Below, piece by piece: positions 16,688 through 23,244 of a stretch of 64,000 nucleotides of DNA (its first letter is position 1; each line of letters begins with the position of its first letter). This DNA comes from Winogradskyella vincentii (GTDB lineage Bacteria; Bacteroidota; Bacteroidia; Flavobacteriales; Flavobacteriaceae). The stretch spans positions 124,001 through 188,000 of the forward strand of contig NZ_JAIUJS010000002.1 in assembly GCF_020166345.1 (NCBI RefSeq), written 5' to 3'. Position numbers and translations under genes: made by a program. The notes below the pieces were generated by a model, which ran no database searches, was not told the origin of the DNA, and was given only the letters and a program-made list of their open reading frames with translations.

Positions 16688-18091
16688 ATGAAAACAATTA
16701 TTACTTTTTTAAGCTTGGTAATAGGATTAACATTTTGTTTTTCCCAGAGCCCTTTACAAGAACCTAATGGAGGTGAATACATTTTTAATCCACCACAGGA
16801 ATCCTGCCTAACTGACCAACAACGTACATTAATCGAACAAGAGACTTCTAGTGGAATTGCACTCCTAAAATCTCAAAATAGATTAGCCTACAATGAGGCT
16901 AACAGAGGTACACATCCTTTATTCATTTGGCCAGTACAAAAATCTAGTTCGTCATCATACAATGAAATCTATGGTGTTTCAAACTATGTAGACCATAATA
17001 CTTCATTTCCTGATCAGCTTACAGATTATAACTGCGGTGCCAGATCGTATGATACTACTAATGGCTATAACCATCAAGGCCTTGACGTTTATTCATGGCC
17101 GTTCGGGTGGTATTTGATGGATAATGATGAGGTTGAAATTATTGCTGGAGCACCTGGTCAAATCATTGCAAAAAACGATGGGAATTTTGATCGTAGCTGT
17201 GACTTTAGCACCACGACGCCTTGGAATGCTGTTTATATTCAACATAGCGATGGTAGTATTGCTTGGTATGGTCATCTAAAGAACGGTTCATTAACCTCAA
17301 AAAATATTGGCGATATGGTTAGTGAAGGCGAATTTTTGGGCGTTATGGGTAGTTCTGGTGTATCCACTGGCCCGCACTTGCATTTTGAGGTTTACACAGA
17401 TGCTAATTACACTCAATTGGTAGATCCATACGCTGGCACTTGCAATACCATGAATACTGAATCTTGGTGGCAAACTCAGAGACCATATAATAGTCCGGGC
17501 ATCAATGCTGTTATAACTCACTCAGCTCCGCCAGTTTTTAACGCATGCCCAACAACAGAAACTACAAACGAAAGTGATAGTTTTGATAATGCTGATAACA
17601 TTTACTTTGCTTTTTACCTGAGGGACCAAGTTGCTGGTTCTTCAATTAATCTAAAAATAACTAGGCCTGATAATTCAACTTTGTATAATTGGAATTTTGA
17701 TTTAAACAACGATTTTTATTCATCTTACTTCTACTGGAATTTTAGTGGTGTGTTTGCAATGAGTGGTGAATGGACTTGGGAGGCTACATATTTTGGAGAA
17801 ACAGTTTCTCATTCCTTTAACGTCGGTTCATTAAGCATTGATGAAGATTCTTCAGAAAGCACCTCAATATATCCAAACCCAGCAACTGATGTTTTGCAAA
17901 TTGACACTAATACAATCATTACAAATGCTAATATTATTGACGTTACAGGAAAGTCTATTTTAGCTATAAGCAATCAAAATTCAGTTGGCATTAAAAGTAT
18001 AGACCTGTCAAATATTGCCAAAGGGATGTACTTCTTGACGTTAAAAGGAGAATCTGGAGAAACCAAAATACATAGGTTTATTAAAAACTAA
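16688..18091 (+). CDS. Secreted M23 metallopeptidase with T9SS sorting domain
   Basis: This 467-residue protein has a signal peptide (about 1-19). The LytM/M23 domain has the full zinc set: NHQGLDV (His129, Asp133), a second motif WYGHL (His196) and HLHFE (His230, His232). A beta-rich region follows, then a C-terminal type A sorting domain starting IYPNPATDVLQI. It probably cleaves peptidoglycan cross-bridges or glycine-rich peptides outside the cell, possibly as a bacteriolytic enzyme. It stands alone between the ricT promoter region and a shared terminator. Confidence 0.9.
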   Translation: MKTIITFLSLVIGLTFCFSQSPLQEPNGGEYIFNPPQESCLTDQQRTLIEQETSSGIALLKSQNRLAYNEANRGTHPLFIWPVQKSSSSSYNEIYGVSNYVDHNTSFPDQLTDYNCGARSYDTTNGYNHQGLDVYSWPFGWYLMDNDEVEIIAGAPGQIIAKNDGNFDRSCDFSTTTPWNAVYIQHSDGSIAWYGHLKNGSLTSKNIGDMVSEGEFLGVMGSSGVSTGPHLHFEVYTDANYTQLVDPYAGTCNTMNTESWWQTQRPYNSPGINAVITHSAPPVFNACPTTETTNESDSFDNADNIYFAFYLRDQVAGSSINLKITRPDNSTLYNWNFDLNNDFYSSYFYWNFSGVFAMSGEWTWEATYFGETVSHSFNVGSLSIDEDSSESTSIYPNPATDVLQIDTNTIITNANIIDVTGKSILAISNQNSVGIKSIDLSNIAKGMYFLTLKGESGETKIHRFIKN

Positions 18092-18095
18092 TATT

Positions 18096-18126
18096 AAAAA
18101 AGGCTCTTTTTCAAGAGCCTTTTTTT
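18096..18126. terminator. Bidirectional terminator between the M23 peptidase and trhO
   Basis: AAAAAAGGCTCTT-TTTC-AAGAGCCTTTTTTT is symmetrical with A and T runs on both sides. It sits between two convergent genes and touches the trhO stop codon. Confidence 0.9.
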
Positions 18127-19192
18127 ATTGTGGTTTTAATGTATCAAAAATATTTCTCAAGTCCTTTTTAAAAGGCAGATGATCTGCCCTTCCCTTTTTG
18201 AAGATATCATTACTGTTGCCTTGTCCTTTTCGCATTGCTTTTTGCTCTTCATATGGCAGTTTAATAATCTCTTGACAGTTTGTTGAACAGCAATTGTCCA
18301 TTTTTTCTTTGCACTCATCACATTGAATAAATAATAAATGACAACCCTCGTTCGCACAATTTGTATGCAAATCAGCTGGTTTGCCACATTGATGACAATT
18401 TGCTATTACGTCATTACTTATTCGCTCTGATCGACGTTGGTCAAAGACAAAATTTTTACCAATAAACTTGTTGTCTAAACCTTTAGATTCAACCTGTCTG
18501 GCATAATTAATAATACCTCCTTCTAACTGATAAACATTTTTAAATCCCTTGTGCTTATAGTAGGCACTGGCCTTTTCACATCTAATTCCACCTGTACAAT
18601 ACATTACAAGCTTTTTGTCCTCCTTGTGTTCTTTTAAATCTTCTTCTATTAGGTCTAAGGACTCTCTAAACGTATCTACATCTGGAGTTACGGCATTTTT
18701 AAAATGGCCTATTTCACTTTCGTAGTGATTTCGCATATCTACCAATACCGTATCTGGATCTTCAATAAGCTCATTAAACTGCTCCGCATCTACATGTATT
18801 CCTTTATTTGTTACATCAAAGGAATCATCGTTTAAACCATCTGCTACAATTTTATGACGCACTTTTACCTTTAGTTTTAAAAAGGCAAAATTATCGTGCT
18901 CAATAGCAATGTTCAATCTTACATTTTCTAAAAAAGAAATGGTGTCAAGGTGGTTTTTAAACGCTTCAAAATTTTCTGCTGGCACAGAAAGTTGGGCATT
19001 TATACCTTCATTTGCGACATAAATTCTGCCTAGGACATCAAATTGGTCCCACGCTAAGAACAAGTGGTTTCTAAAAATTTCTGGATTGCCAATTTTGGCG
19101 TACTTATAGAAAGAGATTGTTAAGCGTTCTTTTCCCGCTTTTTCAATTAACTCCGCTCTTTCCTTAGCACTTAAGTTATTGTACAGTTGCAT
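18125..19192 (-). CDS. trhO: tRNA uridine(34) hydroxylase, rhodanese-like
   Basis: This 355-residue TrhO (YceA) family protein has an N-terminal acylphosphatase-like domain and a rhodanese domain with the active loop VMYCTGGIRCEKAS (Cys199). A C-terminal region is rich in Cys pairs (CHQCGKPADLHTNC, CDECKEKMDNCCSTNC), likely to bind zinc. TrhO makes 5-hydroxyuridine at the wobble position of some tRNAs using O2. It runs convergent to the M23 peptidase. Upstream lies the terminator of a separate minus-strand unit, so trhO should have its own promoter. Confidence 0.9.
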   Translation of the reverse strand: MQLYNNLSAKERAELIEKAGKERLTISFYKYAKIGNPEIFRNHLFLAWDQFDVLGRIYVANEGINAQLSVPAENFEAFKNHLDTISFLENVRLNIAIEHDNFAFLKLKVKVRHKIVADGLNDDSFDVTNKGIHVDAEQFNELIEDPDTVLVDMRNHYESEIGHFKNAVTPDVDTFRESLDLIEEDLKEHKEDKKLVMYCTGGIRCEKASAYYKHKGFKNVYQLEGGIINYARQVESKGLDNKFIGKNFVFDQRRSERISNDVIANCHQCGKPADLHTNCANEGCHLLFIQCDECKEKMDNCCSTNCQEIIKLPYEEQKAMRKGQGNSNDIFKKGRADHLPFKKDLRNIFDTLKPQ

Positions 19193-19254: not shown

Positions 19255-19289
19255 ATTAAAAAAGCACCTTAAAAGTATTAAAGTGCTTT
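19255..19289 (-). terminator. Terminator of the minus-strand unit upstream of recA
   Basis: On the minus strand AAAGCACTTT...AAGGTGCTTT forms a 10-position stem with one mismatch, followed directly by a T-rich run (TTTTTTAAT). No annotated gene on this strand ends here, which is the first hint of a small transcript. Confidence 0.7.
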
Positions 19290-19478
19290 CCTTAGATTAA
19301 CTAACTATAACTAAAACTAATTAAAAAGGTTAATCTACATCGGCTATCAGCTACCGTCTCAATACAGTAGCTGAAACACCTAATGCTTTGCTAACTTGGT
19401 TTATTTAAAAAGTAGAAAATTTTAAAAGACTTATCTCAACTTTTTAAAAGGCTTTCATAGCAATTATTTCCTTTTTCA
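19255..19478 (-). ncRNA. Candidate ECF-sigma-dependent small RNA (or tiny ORF) upstream of recA
   Basis: This is an approximately 220-base unit in the 386-base trhO-recA gap. It begins 6-7 bases after an ECF-type promoter (19484-19513) and ends in an intrinsic terminator. It contains a perfect 8-bp hairpin (TCAGCTAC 19347-19354 with GTAGCTGA 19367-19374). No ORF of normal size is present. The first ATG (19479) opens an 11-codon peptide, and the same frame holds two more short open stretches separated by stops. Because the predicted start of transcription falls on that ATG, a non-coding or leaderless product is likely. The evidence is positional and structural only. Confidence 0.5.
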
Positions 19479-19483
19479 TTTAG

Positions 19484-19513
19484 TAGATGTAAAAAGTGTA
19501 AAATGGTTGCGTC
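19484..19513 (-). promoter_or_regulatory. ECF-sigma-type promoter, minus strand
   Basis: Read on the minus strand it is GACGCAACC, then 15 bases, then CATCTA(CT). The spacing and both boxes match the element at 20626-20655 upstream of the ECF operon. It points away from recA into the candidate small RNA. Confidence 0.6.
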
Positions 19514-19519
19514 ATAAAA

Positions 19520-19549
19520 TTGAAATAATTAAAATAAGTGGTATTTTTG
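19520..19549 (+). promoter_or_regulatory. recA promoter (TTG-N19-TATTTTTG)
   Basis: TTG at 19520-19522 and TATTTTTG at 19542-19549, separated by exactly 19 bases, fit the Bacteroidota housekeeping consensus. The recA ATG is 30 bases downstream. No obvious LexA-like palindrome was found. Confidence 0.75.
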
Positions 19550-19578
19550 ATGTTCAATTAATTAAGAAAAACGTTTAG

Positions 19579-20583
19579 ATGAGTAGTGAAAAAGACGCAA
19601 AATTAAAAGCGCTAAAACTAACTTTAGATAAGTTAGACAAAGCTTATGGCAAGGGTACTGTAATGAAAATGAGTGATCAGGCAATAGAGGATGTAGATGC
19701 CATTTCTTCTGGTTCACTAGGATTGGATATTGCATTGGGTGTAGGAGGTTATCCAAGAGGAAGAGTAATTGAAATTTATGGCCCAGAATCATCTGGTAAA
19801 ACTACACTAACGTTACATGCTATCGCTGAAGCGCAAAAAGCAGGTGGAATTGCAGCCTTTATTGATGCAGAACATGCTTTTGATCGTTTTTATGCAGAAA
19901 AATTAGGTGTTGATTTAGAAAACCTTATCATATCTCAACCAGATAATGGTGAGCAAGCATTAGAGATTGCAGATAATCTTGTGCGTTCTGGTGCAATTGA
20001 TATTGTAGTAATTGATTCCGTTGCCGCACTTACACCAAAGAGTGAGATTGAAGGTGAAATGGGAGACTCAAAAATGGGATTACATGCGCGTTTAATGTCT
20101 CAGGCTTTAAGAAAGCTTACGGCATCAATTAGTAAAACAAACTGTACAATGATCTTCATTAACCAATTACGTGAAAAAATTGGTGTAATGTTTGGTAACC
20201 CTGAAACGACTACAGGTGGAAATGCACTGAAGTTTTATGCTTCTGTACGTTTAGATATAAGACGTTCTACACAAATAAAAGACAGCAACAGTAATGTTAT
20301 GGGTAATAAAACCCGTGTTAAGGTTGTAAAAAATAAGGTTGCGCCTCCATTTAGAACTGCTGAATTTGATATAATGTATGGCGAAGGAATTTCTAAAGTT
20401 GGTGAAGTACTAGATTTAGCGGTAGAACATGACATTGTGAAGAAGAGTGGATCATGGTTTAGCTACGAAGACACTAAACTTGGCCAAGGAAGAGATGCTG
20501 TAAAATCTCTGATAAAAGATAATCCGGATTTAATGGATGAACTAGAAGAAAAAGTGAGGGCGCTCATTAATGATTCTAAGTAA
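19579..20583 (+). CDS. recA: Recombinase RecA
   Basis: This 334-residue RecA has Walker A GPESSGKT (68-75), [10 protein letters not shown] as Walker B, the L1/L2 loops ([22 protein letters not shown] and [18 protein letters not shown] regions, both typical) and an acidic C-terminus. It forms filaments on single-stranded DNA for recombination and repair. It has its own promoter and terminator and lies between two outward-facing ECF-type promoters. It appears to be an independent transcription unit that merely separates them. Confidence 0.98.
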
Positions 20584-20589
20584 TATTTT

Positions 20590-20619
20590 AAAATCCTGAA
20601 AAATTTCAGGATTTTTTTG
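20590..20619 (+). terminator. recA terminator
   Basis: AAAATCCTGAAA-AATTTCAGGATTTTTTT lies 7 bases after the recA stop and ends in a T-run. Confidence 0.9.
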
Positions 20620-20625
20620 TTTTAG

Positions 20626-20655
20626 GACGCAACCCTTTTAGGTTTTTTGCATCTA
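20626..20655 (+). promoter_or_regulatory. ECF-sigma-type promoter of the lipoprotein-sigma-barrel operon
   Basis: GACGCAACC (20626-20634), a 15-base spacer, then CATCTA (20650-20655) followed by CT. The -35 core with AAC and a -10 containing TCTA are usual for ECF promoters. The lipoprotein ATG is 26 bases downstream of the -10 box. It is the near-twin of the minus-strand element at 19484-19513, which supports autoregulation by the sigma factor encoded here. Confidence 0.65.
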
Positions 20656-20681: not shown

Positions 20682-21095
20682 ATGAAAAGGTTTGGTTTAA
20701 TAGCTGTGATACTGTTTTCATTTTTGTGCTCATGTAGTCTTGAGGATGAAGATGAACCGTCTTACTACCTTGAAGTAATGCCAATTGATTCTGTAGAAAT
20801 GCCAGAGGAATTTGTGTATGGTGAGACCTATGACATTCTATTAACCTATACGCGCCCTACATTTTGTTATGCGTTTAATAATTTTGCCTACGATATTGAT
20901 GGGCATGAGAGAACCATAGCGGTTGTTAACTCTGTATATACTAATCTTGATTGCGCACAGCAGTCTGGAGAAGTAACTGTAAGTTTTGAATTTTCTGTAA
21001 CAGGAACCGAAACCTACATATTTAAATTTTATCAGGGCAAAGATAGTAACGGACAAGACCAGTACTATTTGGTAGAAGTACCAGTAGTACAATAA
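20682..21095 (+). CDS. Unrecognised small lipoprotein, first gene of the ECF operon
   Basis: This 137-residue protein has a signal peptide and a lipobox-like LCSC near residue 17-18, followed by an acidic stretch (LEDEDEP). The +2 region is acidic, not a clear inner-membrane retention signal. The mature part looks like a single beta-sandwich and has two more cysteines (TFCYAF, NLDCAQ) that could form a disulfide. I do not recognise the family. Its place between the ECF promoter and the sigma gene suggests a role in sensing envelope state or as a target of the response. Function is inferred from context only. Confidence 0.75.
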   Translation: MKRFGLIAVILFSFLCSCSLEDEDEPSYYLEVMPIDSVEMPEEFVYGETYDILLTYTRPTFCYAFNNFAYDIDGHERTIAVVNSVYTNLDCAQQSGEVTVSFEFSVTGTETYIFKFYQGKDSNGQDQYYLVEVPVVQ

Positions 21096-21119
21096 TTATT
21101 AATTAATTACCGAAAAAAT

Positions 21120-21665
21120 GTGAGTTTAGATCAACTCATAAATAATTGTATAAAACAAGATGCTAAAGCACAAAGCCAATTATACAAGCAGTTTGCAAGT
21201 AAATTATTTTCGCTTTGTCTTAAGTATTCTAAAAACTATGCTGAAGCAGAGGATAATCTGCATGATGCATTTATAACTGTATTTAGTAAAATAGATCAGT
21301 ATAATAATAAAGGTTCTTTTGAAGGTTGGTTAAAACGAATTGCGATTAATACATCATTGCAACGCTATAGAGATAGTGCTGGCGTTTTTGACATTGTTAA
21401 TGAAGAACGAATAGAAGATGTAAGTGTTGATATTAATGATGGTGATGTTAGTATAGATTTTTTATTACAGATTATACAAGAATTGCCAGATCGCTATAGA
21501 TTGGTTTTTAATTTGTATGTATTAGATGGCTATTCACATGTGGAAATTAGCGAATTGATTAACATTTCAACCGGAACATCAAAATCTAACTTAGCGAGAG
21601 CTAGAATGATTTTAAAAGAAAAAATAGAAGATTATAAAGCGAATTTAAATTCGCGATCAATATAA
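21120..21665 (+). CDS. ECF-type RNA polymerase sigma factor
   Basis: This 181-residue sigma-70 family protein has a region 2 (about 20-85, with AEAEDNLHDAFITVFSKIDQY and GSFEGWLKRIAINTSL) and a region 4 (about 118-170, with LPDRYRLVFNLYVLDGYSHVEIS and TSKSNLARAR). It starts with GTG at 21120. The overlapping ATG at 21118 is immediately followed by a stop in its own frame. The stop lies one base before the next ATG, so it is probably coupled to the barrel protein. No classical ZAS anti-sigma is adjacent. The next gene's membrane-anchored N-terminus may fill that role. Confidence 0.92.
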   Translation: MSLDQLINNCIKQDAKAQSQLYKQFASKLFSLCLKYSKNYAEAEDNLHDAFITVFSKIDQYNNKGSFEGWLKRIAINTSLQRYRDSAGVFDIVNEERIEDVSVDINDGDVSIDFLLQIIQELPDRYRLVFNLYVLDGYSHVEISELINISTGTSKSNLARARMILKEKIEDYKANLNSRSI

Positions 21666-21666
21666 A

Positions 21667-23244
21667 ATGAGTAATAAGAAAAACATAGATAGACTTTTTC
21701 AAGAAAAGTTTAAGGATTTTGAAGTTACGCCTAATGATGCGGTTTGGGATCGCATTAGTGAAAGTTTGCCTAATAAAAAGAAGAAGCGCAGAGTAATTAT
21801 GTTATGGTGGCAAATAGGTGGCGTGGCTGCGGTTATTGCTTTATTATTAACTGTTGGCGTTTCAGTATTCAATAATAACCCAACAGAACATCAAAATACA
21901 CCTGTAGTAGACGTTGAAATTAAAGGAGAAGAAAATAATTCTGAATCTACAGAAGATGTGTCTGACGATAATACAAACGAGATTATCTCTAAGAAAGAAG
22001 AGCTGATTTCTACAGATGAAAATACCTCGAAAGTTGCTGATAATACAAATGAGAACGCTTCGGAATCTTCAAAAGAAGATGCTACTCAAAATACCAAGCA
22101 ACTAATTAATAATATTACTTCAGATAAACTACAGAAAACTAAGGTTGCTGATAATTCTAACAAGACATCTCAACAACCAGAGAAACCTAATTCTGTCAAT
22201 GAACTTTTAGATGTTGCAAACAACAAGTCATCAACAAAAGTTGCTTCAAATACTACCGATAATAATAAAGAGCAAATTGATAACTCAAGTGTCATTTCAA
22301 ATACTGAAATGAAAGATGTTGTTAAAAATGAATTAGAGAAATCTAAAAATGCGGTTGCTGAAAATAACACCAATGAAACCGGCGATAAGTTAAAAGACAA
22401 TTCAGCTTCAGGTGAGAAAAATGAAGATGCGGTTTCAATATTTGATGAGGTGAACAAACAATCTGTAGAAAATGCTATTGCAGAAAACGATAAAGCCAAT
22501 AATGAAAAAGAAAAGGATAAGCAAAACAGGTGGAGCATAGCGCCTAATGTTGCACCTGTTTATTTTAGTTCTTTAGGACAAGGCTCTCCTGTGCATAGTC
22601 AATTTAACGAAAACTCAAAGAGCAGTGATATTAATATGAGCTATGGTATTGCTGGTTCATACGCAATTACTGACAGGTTAAAAGTTAGAGCAGGTGTTAA
22701 TAGAGTAAATCTAAATTATACTACAGCAGATGTTATTGGATTTGTTGGTTCTGATGCTGTTTCTAGAGGTGTTAACGCACAATTAAGCAATGTAGATTTA
22801 AGTAACGGTGTACAATCTGTTTCCTTGGTTAGTACTTCTATGATTAATAGAGCGACAATGCCAGAGGCATTTAACACTCAATTTGTTGGTGATTTAGATC
22901 AAAGGTTTGGTTTTATTGAAGTACCATTTGAGTTAGAGTATAGATTATTAGATTCACGTTTTGGCGTTAACTTTATTGGTGGCTTTAGTACATTCTTCTT
23001 AAGTGAAAATGAAATATACGCAGATATCAATGGTAGTTCTACTCTCATTGGTGAGGCAAACAATATTAATAGCACAAGTTTTAGTGCAAACTTTGGATTA
23101 GGTTTAGATTATAGCCTGTCCAAAAAATGGAATTTTAATCTTGAACCAACGTTCAAGTATCAACTGAATACATTCAATAATACGTCTGGTAATTTTAGAC
23201 CATTCTTTATTGGAGTGTATACAGGATTAAGTTTTAAGTTTTAG
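21667..23244 (+). CDS. Trans-envelope protein: cytoplasmic head, TM helix, long linker, outer-membrane barrel
   Basis: This 525-residue protein follows the ECF sigma gene with a one-base gap. Residues 1-42 are cytoplasmic (DRLFQEKFKDFE...W..I pattern, seen in many flavobacterial membrane proteins) and end in a basic patch. One TM helix spans about 43-68. A linker of about 220 residues is rich in Asn, Lys, Ser, Glu, with recurring KVADN/KVASN-like units. Residues 289-525 look like an outer-membrane beta-barrel with alternating strands and a terminal Phe (SFKF). The layout could tie the inner to the outer membrane and pass a signal to the sigma factor. That mechanism is inference. Confidence 0.8.
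   Translation: MSNKKNIDRLFQEKFKDFEVTPNDAVWDRISESLPNKKKKRRVIMLWWQIGGVAAVIALLLTVGVSVFNNNPTEHQNTPVVDVEIKGEENNSESTEDVSDDNTNEIISKKEELISTDENTSKVADNTNENASESSKEDATQNTKQLINNITSDKLQKTKVADNSNKTSQQPEKPNSVNELLDVANNKSSTKVASNTTDNNKEQIDNSSVISNTEMKDVVKNELEKSKNAVAENNTNETGDKLKDNSASGEKNEDAVSIFDEVNKQSVENAIAENDKANNEKEKDKQNRWSIAPNVAPVYFSSLGQGSPVHSQFNENSKSSDINMSYGIAGSYAITDRLKVRAGVNRVNLNYTTADVIGFVGSDAVSRGVNAQLSNVDLSNGVQSVSLVSTSMINRATMPEAFNTQFVGDLDQRFGFIEVPFELEYRLLDSRFGVNFIGGFSTFFLSENEIYADINGSSTLIGEANNINSTSFSANFGLGLDYSLSKKWNFNLEPTFKYQLNTFNNTSGNFRPFFIGVYTGLSFKF

What the first reader, a model, noticed from the sequence alone, without database searches (positions are those of the whole stretch)
19484..20655. Two matched ECF-type promoters flank recA and point outward
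The minus strand at 19513-19484 and the plus strand at 20626-20655 both read GACGCAACC, then a 15-base spacer after GCAACC, then CATCTACT. Over about 40 bases they agree at roughly 32 positions. One stands before the operon that encodes an ECF sigma factor. ECF promoters usually have an AAC core at -35 and are often autoregulated. So this looks like the motif of that sigma factor, with a second target on the other side of recA.
Basis: partly seen in the sequence, partly recalled or inferred. Interest (0 to 1): 0.8.

Follow-up and report, generated by a model that had tools for sequence, protein, structure and literature searches.

The report
Stress promoter pair and structured RNA
Two matching DNA switches on either side of the repair gene recA in a marine Winogradskyella look like targets of one cell-envelope stress factor: one turns on the factor's own genes, the other a structured small RNA whose relatives in sister genera still encode a tiny protein.

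Summary
ACGCAACC-N15-CATCTA occurs in 60 of 60 genus genomes, with 1 reversed-control match in all. The 81 sites away from recA that I examined all precede an ORF with a signal-peptide-like start, against 15 of 49 window ORFs. Across 149 family genomes the motif is present in 49 of 52 with a close orthologue of this sigma factor and in 0 of 23 without one.

The plus site heads the lipoprotein / ECF sigma / anti-sigma operon; the anti-sigma protein has the layout of a Dma-type protein spanning both membranes.

The new part is the minus site. It appears to serve neither recA nor trhO, but a separate ~220-nt transcript ending in a hairpin and T-run. It folds strongly (z -5.5) and shows compensatory changes; a model of its core finds a strong match in 58 of 60 genus genomes. 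In sister genera the same transcript carries a 28-30 aa ORF ending KADGG; the window's clade lost it, once on the tree, but kept promoter, 5' block and hairpins.

Most likely: an ECF-dependent small RNA derived from a small-protein mRNA. No expression data; targets unknown.

The parts
20626..20655 (+). ECF-type promoter of the lipoprotein / sigma / anti-sigma operon: GACGCAACC-N15-CATCTA
   Evidence: of 70 recA loci 62 have the site and 7 a one-base -10 variant, L107 has none
19484..19513 (-). ECF-type promoter of the small structured transcript
   Evidence: conserved
19257..19479 (-). Predicted ~220-nt small RNA (start inferred from the -10 box, end from the terminator); no conserved ORF in this clade
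19454..19480 (-). Conserved 5' block AATGAAAAAGGAAATAATTGCTATGAA, unpaired in the predicted fold except six bases near its 3' end; candidate pairing region
   Evidence: mean majority fraction 0.94 against 0.54 in the middle, 30 sequences; fold
19348..19373 (-). Hairpin H2 of the RNA
   Evidence: 9 of 9 pairs show changes on both sides
19293..19337 (-). Hairpin H3 of the RNA
   Evidence: weaker: 81.5-84.8% of cells paired
19257..19290 (-). Intrinsic terminator of the RNA (stem plus T-run)
   Evidence: the simple scanner did not flag it
20682..21095 (+). Lipoprotein-like gene, 137 aa, first gene of the operon
   Evidence: no Pfam family at E <= 0.001, none with an E-value under 0.1 for the window protein
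21120..21665 (+). ECF sigma factor (regions 2 and 4), Das-like
21667..23244 (+). Dma-like anti-sigma: short N-terminal segment, one TM helix near residues 50-68, polar tether, C-terminal outer-membrane barrel
19579..20583 (+). recA, lies between the two promoters; own housekeeping-like box TATTTTTG at 19542-19549
18125..19192 (-). trhO; own TACCTTTG box at 19235-19228, between the RNA terminator and the gene
   Evidence: box consensus TAnnTTTG from PMC9723704

Best explanation
The two boxes are promoters of one autoregulated ECF sigma factor of the Das/Dma type. When the envelope-spanning anti-sigma protein senses outer-membrane trouble (inferred from its layout and from Bacteroides work), the sigma factor is freed and transcribes (1) its own lipoprotein-sigma-anti-sigma operon from the plus site, (2) a handful of genes for exported proteins elsewhere, and (3) from the minus site a separate ~220-nt transcript that ends before trhO. 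In the window's clade that transcript is a non-coding, structured small RNA; in sister genera its homologue also encodes a 28-30 aa peptide ending KADGG. The RNA most likely acts by base pairing, perhaps through its conserved 5' block, as the RNA arm of the envelope response. Shown by sequence comparison: motif, co-occurrence with the sigma gene, RNA structure, ORF loss. Inferred: start sites, sigma specificity, RNA abundance, target pairing.
For: Motif in 60 of 60 genus genomes, 1 reversed-control match in all. 81 of 81 examined sites precede a signal-peptide-like ORF, against 15 of 49 window ORFs. Co-occurrence with the sigma orthologue 49/52, 37/65, 5/9 and 0/23 genomes by falling similarity, Spearman 0.67. 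A motif or variant lies upstream of the sigma operon in 4 of 6 loci away from recA. RNA: z -5.5, 0 of 200 shuffles as stable; cells with two-sided changes 72 against 22.8 in shuffles, 0 of 500; covariance model above 50 bits in 58 of 60 genus genomes. Terminator and a separate trhO box. RNA separable from trhO in L110 and from recA in L076, L078, L079. All 47 KADGG-type ORFs found have the promoter 25-253 nt upstream. ORF loss is one change on the tree, support 97.
Against: No transcript, start site or mutant data. Rfam: nothing reaches gathering score. The simple terminator scan did not flag the RNA's terminator. Duplex search of the 5' block against 49 window genes was negative: best -12.9, while 30 shuffled seeds averaged about -16 for their best. 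Part of the covariance model's score is the terminator: about 40-bit matches occur elsewhere and on the opposite strand. In the covariation tests one of five measures was weaker: two-sided pairs 25 of 500 shuffles, further pair types 383 of 500 in the coding lineages. Other ECF sigma factors could share the motif: one search finds 3 matches in the own genome at E <= 1e-20, this gene included. L124 has neither RNA nor minus site; L114 and L136 keep promoter, 5' block and terminator but not the ORF.
Confidence: 0.77

Rival explanations
1. The minus promoter drives trhO: the structured stretch is only its leader, perhaps an attenuator, so that the envelope stress factor controls tRNA hydroxylation.
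For: The RNA usually lies next to trhO and stays with it when recA is separated (L076, L078, L079). In Flavobacterium psychrophilum an ECF-type promoter (motif SM6) precedes a rhodanese gene annotated YceA (PMC9723704); that YceA equals TrhO is recalled.
Against: A terminator and a separate TAnnTTTG box lie between RNA and trhO. In L110 the RNA is beside recA while a 698-aa ORF separates it from trhO. SM6 is described with a CGT -10 box, unlike the CATCTA here, though CGTCTA variants occur.
Confidence: 0.15
2. The transcript is essentially a small-protein mRNA; the Winogradskyella version is a decaying relic without function.
For: 47 KADGG-type ORFs (37 distinct peptides), all behind the promoter; third codon positions vary most over 28 distinct 30-aa ORFs (25 loci were found by a KADGG pattern, so the last codons are biased). 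The ORF was lost once in this clade.
Against: After the loss the clade keeps promoter, 5' block (0.94) and hairpins with compensatory changes and the RNA in 58 of 60 genus genomes. A relic would drift like the middle segment (0.54). Helix H2 is also kept inside the ORF in the coding lineages, with two-sided changes at 3 of 6 pairs.
Confidence: 0.12
3. Another ECF sigma factor of the same genome reads these promoters, and the sigma gene next door is only one of its targets.
For: Three matches at E <= 1e-20 in the own genome, this gene included; overlapping ECF promoter use is discussed for F. psychrophilum (PMC9723704).
Against: Motif counts follow the similarity of this orthologue, 0 of 23 genomes without it, and a motif lies upstream of its operon in 4 of 6 loci away from recA. 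The paralogues were not tested in the same way.
Confidence: 0.12

Closest known systems
Das/Dma (ECF21) sigma / dual membrane-spanning anti-sigma systems of Bacteroides (PMC13088901, passages; Pardue 2024, not held)
   Same: ECF sigma beside an anti-sigma protein with N-terminal domain, TM helix, long tether and C-terminal barrel; dma2 lies in a three-gene operon; Das2 activity raises its own operon and changes polysaccharide utilization (SusC/SusD-type) genes.
   Different: Here a lipoprotein-like gene without NigD match in Pfam leads the operon. A conserved promoter motif, exported-protein targets and an RNA target are predicted; the words 'motif' and 'small RNA' occur 0 times in that paper's main text.
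Sigma/anti-sigma pair induced by BcpT toxin in Phocaeicola vulgatus (PMC9308784, passages)
   Same: Periplasm-spanning anti-sigma with outer-membrane barrel; small regulon; envelope stress as likely signal.
   Different: Different bacterial group; no small RNA in the passages I saw.
Pos19, RpoE-dependent coding sRNA of Rhodobacter sphaeroides (PMC5036791, abstract)
   Same: ECF-dependent 219-nt RNA with a small ORF; regulation is kept when translation of the ORF is abolished.
   Different: Different phylum and no sequence comparison made; there a 150-nt ORF is translated, here the ORF is absent in the window's clade.
F. psychrophilum Rfp11 and the SM6 promoters (PMC9723704, section 15 part 1, abstract and passages)
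   Same: An sRNA and a rhodanese gene among ECF-type promoter targets in a flavobacterium.
   Different: SM6 is described with a CGT -10 box; the two start sites lie far apart (49622 and 182564); homology of Rfp11 to this RNA could not be tested.

Membership tests
Das/Dma (ECF21) sigma/anti-sigma pair | ECF sigma factor with regions 2 and 4 | tested here: met
   PF04542 and PF08281 above cut-off
Das/Dma (ECF21) sigma/anti-sigma pair | ECF21 group assignment | not tested
   No ECF-group model was used
Das/Dma (ECF21) sigma/anti-sigma pair | Adjacent protein with N-terminal segment, one TM helix and long tether | tested here: met
   Hydropathy peak at residues 50-68; linker 73-285 rich in N, D, S, T, K, E
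Das/Dma (ECF21) sigma/anti-sigma pair | C-terminal outer-membrane beta-barrel | tested here: inconclusive
   OMP_b-brl in 23 of 29 orthologues at E <= 0.01; window protein 24.5 bits, under the 28.7 cut-off; structure prediction not obtained
Das/Dma (ECF21) sigma/anti-sigma pair | N-terminal domain binds the sigma factor | not testable with these tools
   Needs binding or genetics
Das/Dma (ECF21) sigma/anti-sigma pair | NigD-like target (reported for Dma1, not Dma2; not defining) | tested here: not met
   19 lipoprotein orthologues: no NigD family in Pfam at E <= 1
ECF-dependent small RNA | Own promoter of the ECF type | tested here: met
   By sequence:
ECF-dependent small RNA | Own terminator, separate from neighbouring gene | tested here: met
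   By sequence; not flagged by the simple scan
ECF-dependent small RNA | No conserved ORF | tested here: met
   30 RNAs of the window's clade share no ORF
ECF-dependent small RNA | Conserved RNA structure | tested here: met
ECF-dependent small RNA | Expressed under control of the sigma factor | not testable with these tools
   No expression data
ECF-dependent small RNA | Pairs with target mRNAs | tested here: inconclusive
   Only 49 window genes examined, no hit beyond chance
Dual-function (coding) small RNA, as Pos19 | Small conserved ORF inside the RNA | tested here: not met
   Absent in the window; present in 47 homologous loci
Any Rfam family | Gathering score reached | tested here: not met

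The most novel reading that the evidence does not exclude
An envelope-stress ECF system of the Dma type has an RNA arm. Its transcript began as a dual RNA encoding a 28-30 aa KADGG peptide and, within Winogradskyella, lost the ORF while keeping the stress promoter, 5' block, hairpins and terminator: a bacterial mRNA that turned into a regulatory RNA under the same control.
Probability: 0.5. Interest if true: 0.82.

Novelty: new variant of a known kind. Interest (0 to 1): 0.68.

Why it matters
Sigma-E-type responses of Proteobacteria pair a sigma factor with small RNAs that curb outer-membrane proteins (recalled). For the Dma-type systems of Bacteroidota, where the anti-sigma protein itself spans the envelope, no such RNA arm turned up in my searches (an open-access library only, key papers not held). 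The locus gives a promoter motif and predicted targets for a sigma factor found across much of the Flavobacteriaceae. It also offers a case of an mRNA that seems to have become a non-coding RNA, with living coding and non-coding relatives to compare.

Tried and rejected
Rejected: that the sites serve recA (they point away from it; recA has its own TATTTTTG box). Rejected: chance repeat. Rejected as unlikely: minus site as plain trhO promoter. Rejected: a conserved ORF in the RNA of the window's clade.

Led nowhere: Rfam; Pfam and NCBIfam for the KADGG peptides; Pfam for the lipoprotein; duplex target scan; Winogradskyella small-RNA papers (listing only); promoter literature on ECF21 (the EcfO, Pardue and Casas-Pastor papers are not held). 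Structure predictions of the anti-sigma and the lipoprotein failed.

A bias I had to set aside: 25 loci (L143-L167) were found with a pattern spelling KADGG, so the codon statistics of the last codons are not independent. In the subset found through the sigma gene (18 sequences) CKADGG is almost invariant at DNA level too, so protein and RNA constraint cannot be told apart there.

Full report
Where it is. The window is 33.5% G+C; its nearest named relatives are Winogradskyella (97% identical sigma protein in L063). recA (19579-20583, plus) lies between trhO (18125-19192, minus) and an operon of a lipoprotein-like gene, an ECF sigma factor and a Dma-like anti-sigma protein (20682-23244, plus).

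The observation. Both boxes are present at the stated places with a 15-nt spacer. In the window the extended pattern hits nothing else even with 3 mismatches. In the own genome GCAACC-N14..17-CATCTA occurs 6 times, reversed control 0. The informative form is longer: with AC in front, 3 exact sites remain, the pair and L006, the last 19 nt before a 155-aa exported protein. Of the 157 one- and two-mismatch matches, 26 were fetched and examined. The two with AC in front and GCAACC intact also precede signal-peptide-like ORFs: L010 (-10 box CGTCTA, 194 aa) and L016 (-10 box TATCTT, start as in the TonB-receptor-like group below). None of the other 24 precedes such an ORF within 200 nt.

A real promoter motif. 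ACGCAACC-N15-CATCTA is in 60 of 60 genus genomes, 1 reversed-control match in all; in 91 of 149 family genomes; and, with spacer 14-16, in 1 of 104 genomes of other families of the order. From the places printed I fetched 80 outside the recA region, in 31 genomes. Not fetched: three at contig edges (G328:C8, G019:C6, G310:C14), G322:C43, G322:C123, G009:C4, G328:C11:610387, sites that I took for the recA pair or the RNA, and everything beyond the printed list. With L006 these are 81. All 81 are followed by an ORF, 62 at 4-54 nt and 19 at 118-154 nt (the 19 form one group, recognised as SusC/RagA-like from recall), and all 81 ORFs start with a signal-peptide-like segment by a crude rule of mine, against 15 of 49 window ORFs.

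Which sigma factor. In 149 family genomes the motif is present in 49 of 52 with a close orthologue of this sigma factor, 37 of 65 with a middling one, 5 of 9 with a weak one and 0 of 23 with none or a very weak one. Six loci have the sigma operon away from recA or on a short contig. In four of them a motif or variant lies upstream: Aquimarina L141 and Dokdonia L139 with a GTCTA -10 box, Tenacibaculum L137 and Polaribacter L138 787 and 1264 nt up; not in L140 or L142. This is correlation, not proof.

Conservation at recA. One search gave 80 loci, the best of 106 relatives. Of 70 with recA and upstream DNA, 62 have GCAAC-N16-CATCTA after recA and 52 before it on the minus strand, within 200 nt. 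One search shows one-base -10 variants for 7 of the 8 plus misses (L107 is the exception) and for 5 of the 6 minus misses with trhO nearby (L124 is the exception). In L076, L078 and L079 the minus site stands with trhO, away from recA. In nine loci trhO was not in the fetched flank, so the minus site could not be judged there.

The minus transcript. Downstream of the minus site come a conserved 5' block, hairpins and a terminator, then a TAnnTTTG box before trhO. The window's RNA folds at -64.6 kcal/mol, z -5.5. In 28 homologues of the window's clade (of 30; L091 and L095 left out as short), helix H2 shows two-sided changes at 9 of 9 pairs; overall 72 cells with two-sided changes against 22.8 +/- 5.6 in shuffles, and sliding the partner by 1-3 columns drops pairing from 92% to 34-55%; the count of two-sided pairs alone is less striking, 25 of 500 shuffles reaching it. 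A covariance model of the 3' core finds one strong match (over 50 bits) in 58 of 60 genus genomes, many of them close to or the same as the training species; the two others are 75% and 79% complete. Of 33 named sources it finds the locus in 24; it misses L114, L124, L133, L136 and the five loci tested whose sigma operon is elsewhere. In 149 family genomes 38 match at E <= 1e-4; of the 26 with 48.8 bits or more, 19 lie beside a printed exact motif, 5 have the promoter (G197 as a one-base variant), G127 was not printed and G121 has no exact motif. Rfam has no family for it at gathering score.

A lost small ORF. In sister genera and in three Winogradskyella (L110, L111, L130) the RNA carries an ORF of 28 or 30 codons, consensus MKFFKK......LGVSVAV..NS.CKADGG (35 of 37 distinct peptides aligned); in L133 my script took a later start (23 codons, ending CKVDGG). 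I found 47 such ORFs, 37 distinct, all with the promoter (relaxed pattern) 25-253 nt upstream. No Pfam or NCBIfam model fits. Helix H2 also exists inside the ORF and shows two-sided changes at 3 of 6 pairs; four of five measures exceed all shuffles, further pair types do not. In 30 RNAs of the window's clade there is no shared ORF. On a sigma+recA tree of 70 rows the change from ORF to no ORF occurs once, support 97; 35 rows were labelled no ORF (30, 5 read), 23 ORF, 12 unlabelled, among them L114, L124 and L136; quick method, SH-aLRT only. L114 and L136 look like further losses with a shortened RNA. After the loss the 5' block stayed at 0.94 mean majority fraction, the middle at 0.54.

How it probably works. 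The anti-sigma protein has the layout described for Dma proteins (PMC13088901, passages): N-terminal segment, one helix, polar tether, barrel domain. The barrel is supported in 23 of 29 orthologues but below Pfam's cut-off for the window protein. By analogy with Das/Dma, and with the toxin-induced pair of P. vulgatus (PMC9308784, passages), release of the sigma factor on envelope stress would raise the operon, a few exported proteins and the RNA. The RNA's role is inferred: the conserved 5' block looks like a pairing region, but a scan of 49 window genes found nothing.

Novelty. The sigma/anti-sigma pair belongs to a known kind. The promoter motif, the exported-protein regulon and the RNA with its ORF loss were not found in print by my searches (open-access library only; key papers not held). 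An sRNA (Rfp11) and a rhodanese gene under an ECF-type motif in F. psychrophilum (PMC9723704, section 15 part 1, abstract and passages) and Pos19 (PMC5036791, abstract) are the nearest precedents seen.

Noticed in passing
recA-flanking site pairs of L118, L119, L125, L127, L128 and others; window 19484-19513 and 20626-20655: In 20 non-Winogradskyella genomes the 15-nt spacers of the two sites resemble each other within a genome more than between genomes (11.65 against 10.44 matches; none of 20,000 shuffles and none of 5,000 as high), while the 20-nt flanks do not; in Winogradskyella no such effect. Short-tract gene conversion between the inverted copies is a possible cause; relatedness is not fully controlled.
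   Followed up: partly
L203, L205, L208 and 16 further loci; own genome L016: 19 of 81 motif sites precede the same TonB-receptor-like gene with a leader of 118-154 nt, unlike the short leaders elsewhere. A long leader could hold a regulatory site.
   Followed up: no
L077:1688-3175 and L096:2393-3160, minus strand: Exported-protein-like genes lying between recA and the RNA have their own copy of the motif core upstream.
   Followed up: no
A2 columns 67-76 and 126-134 (L110-L166): In coding lineages the stretch AACGAGTTAGTC after the ORF is almost invariant although its loop varies; reason unknown.
   Followed up: no
window 16688-18091, plus: 467-aa protein with an exported start and a C-terminal segment like a type IX secretion sorting tail (recalled pattern).
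   Followed up: no
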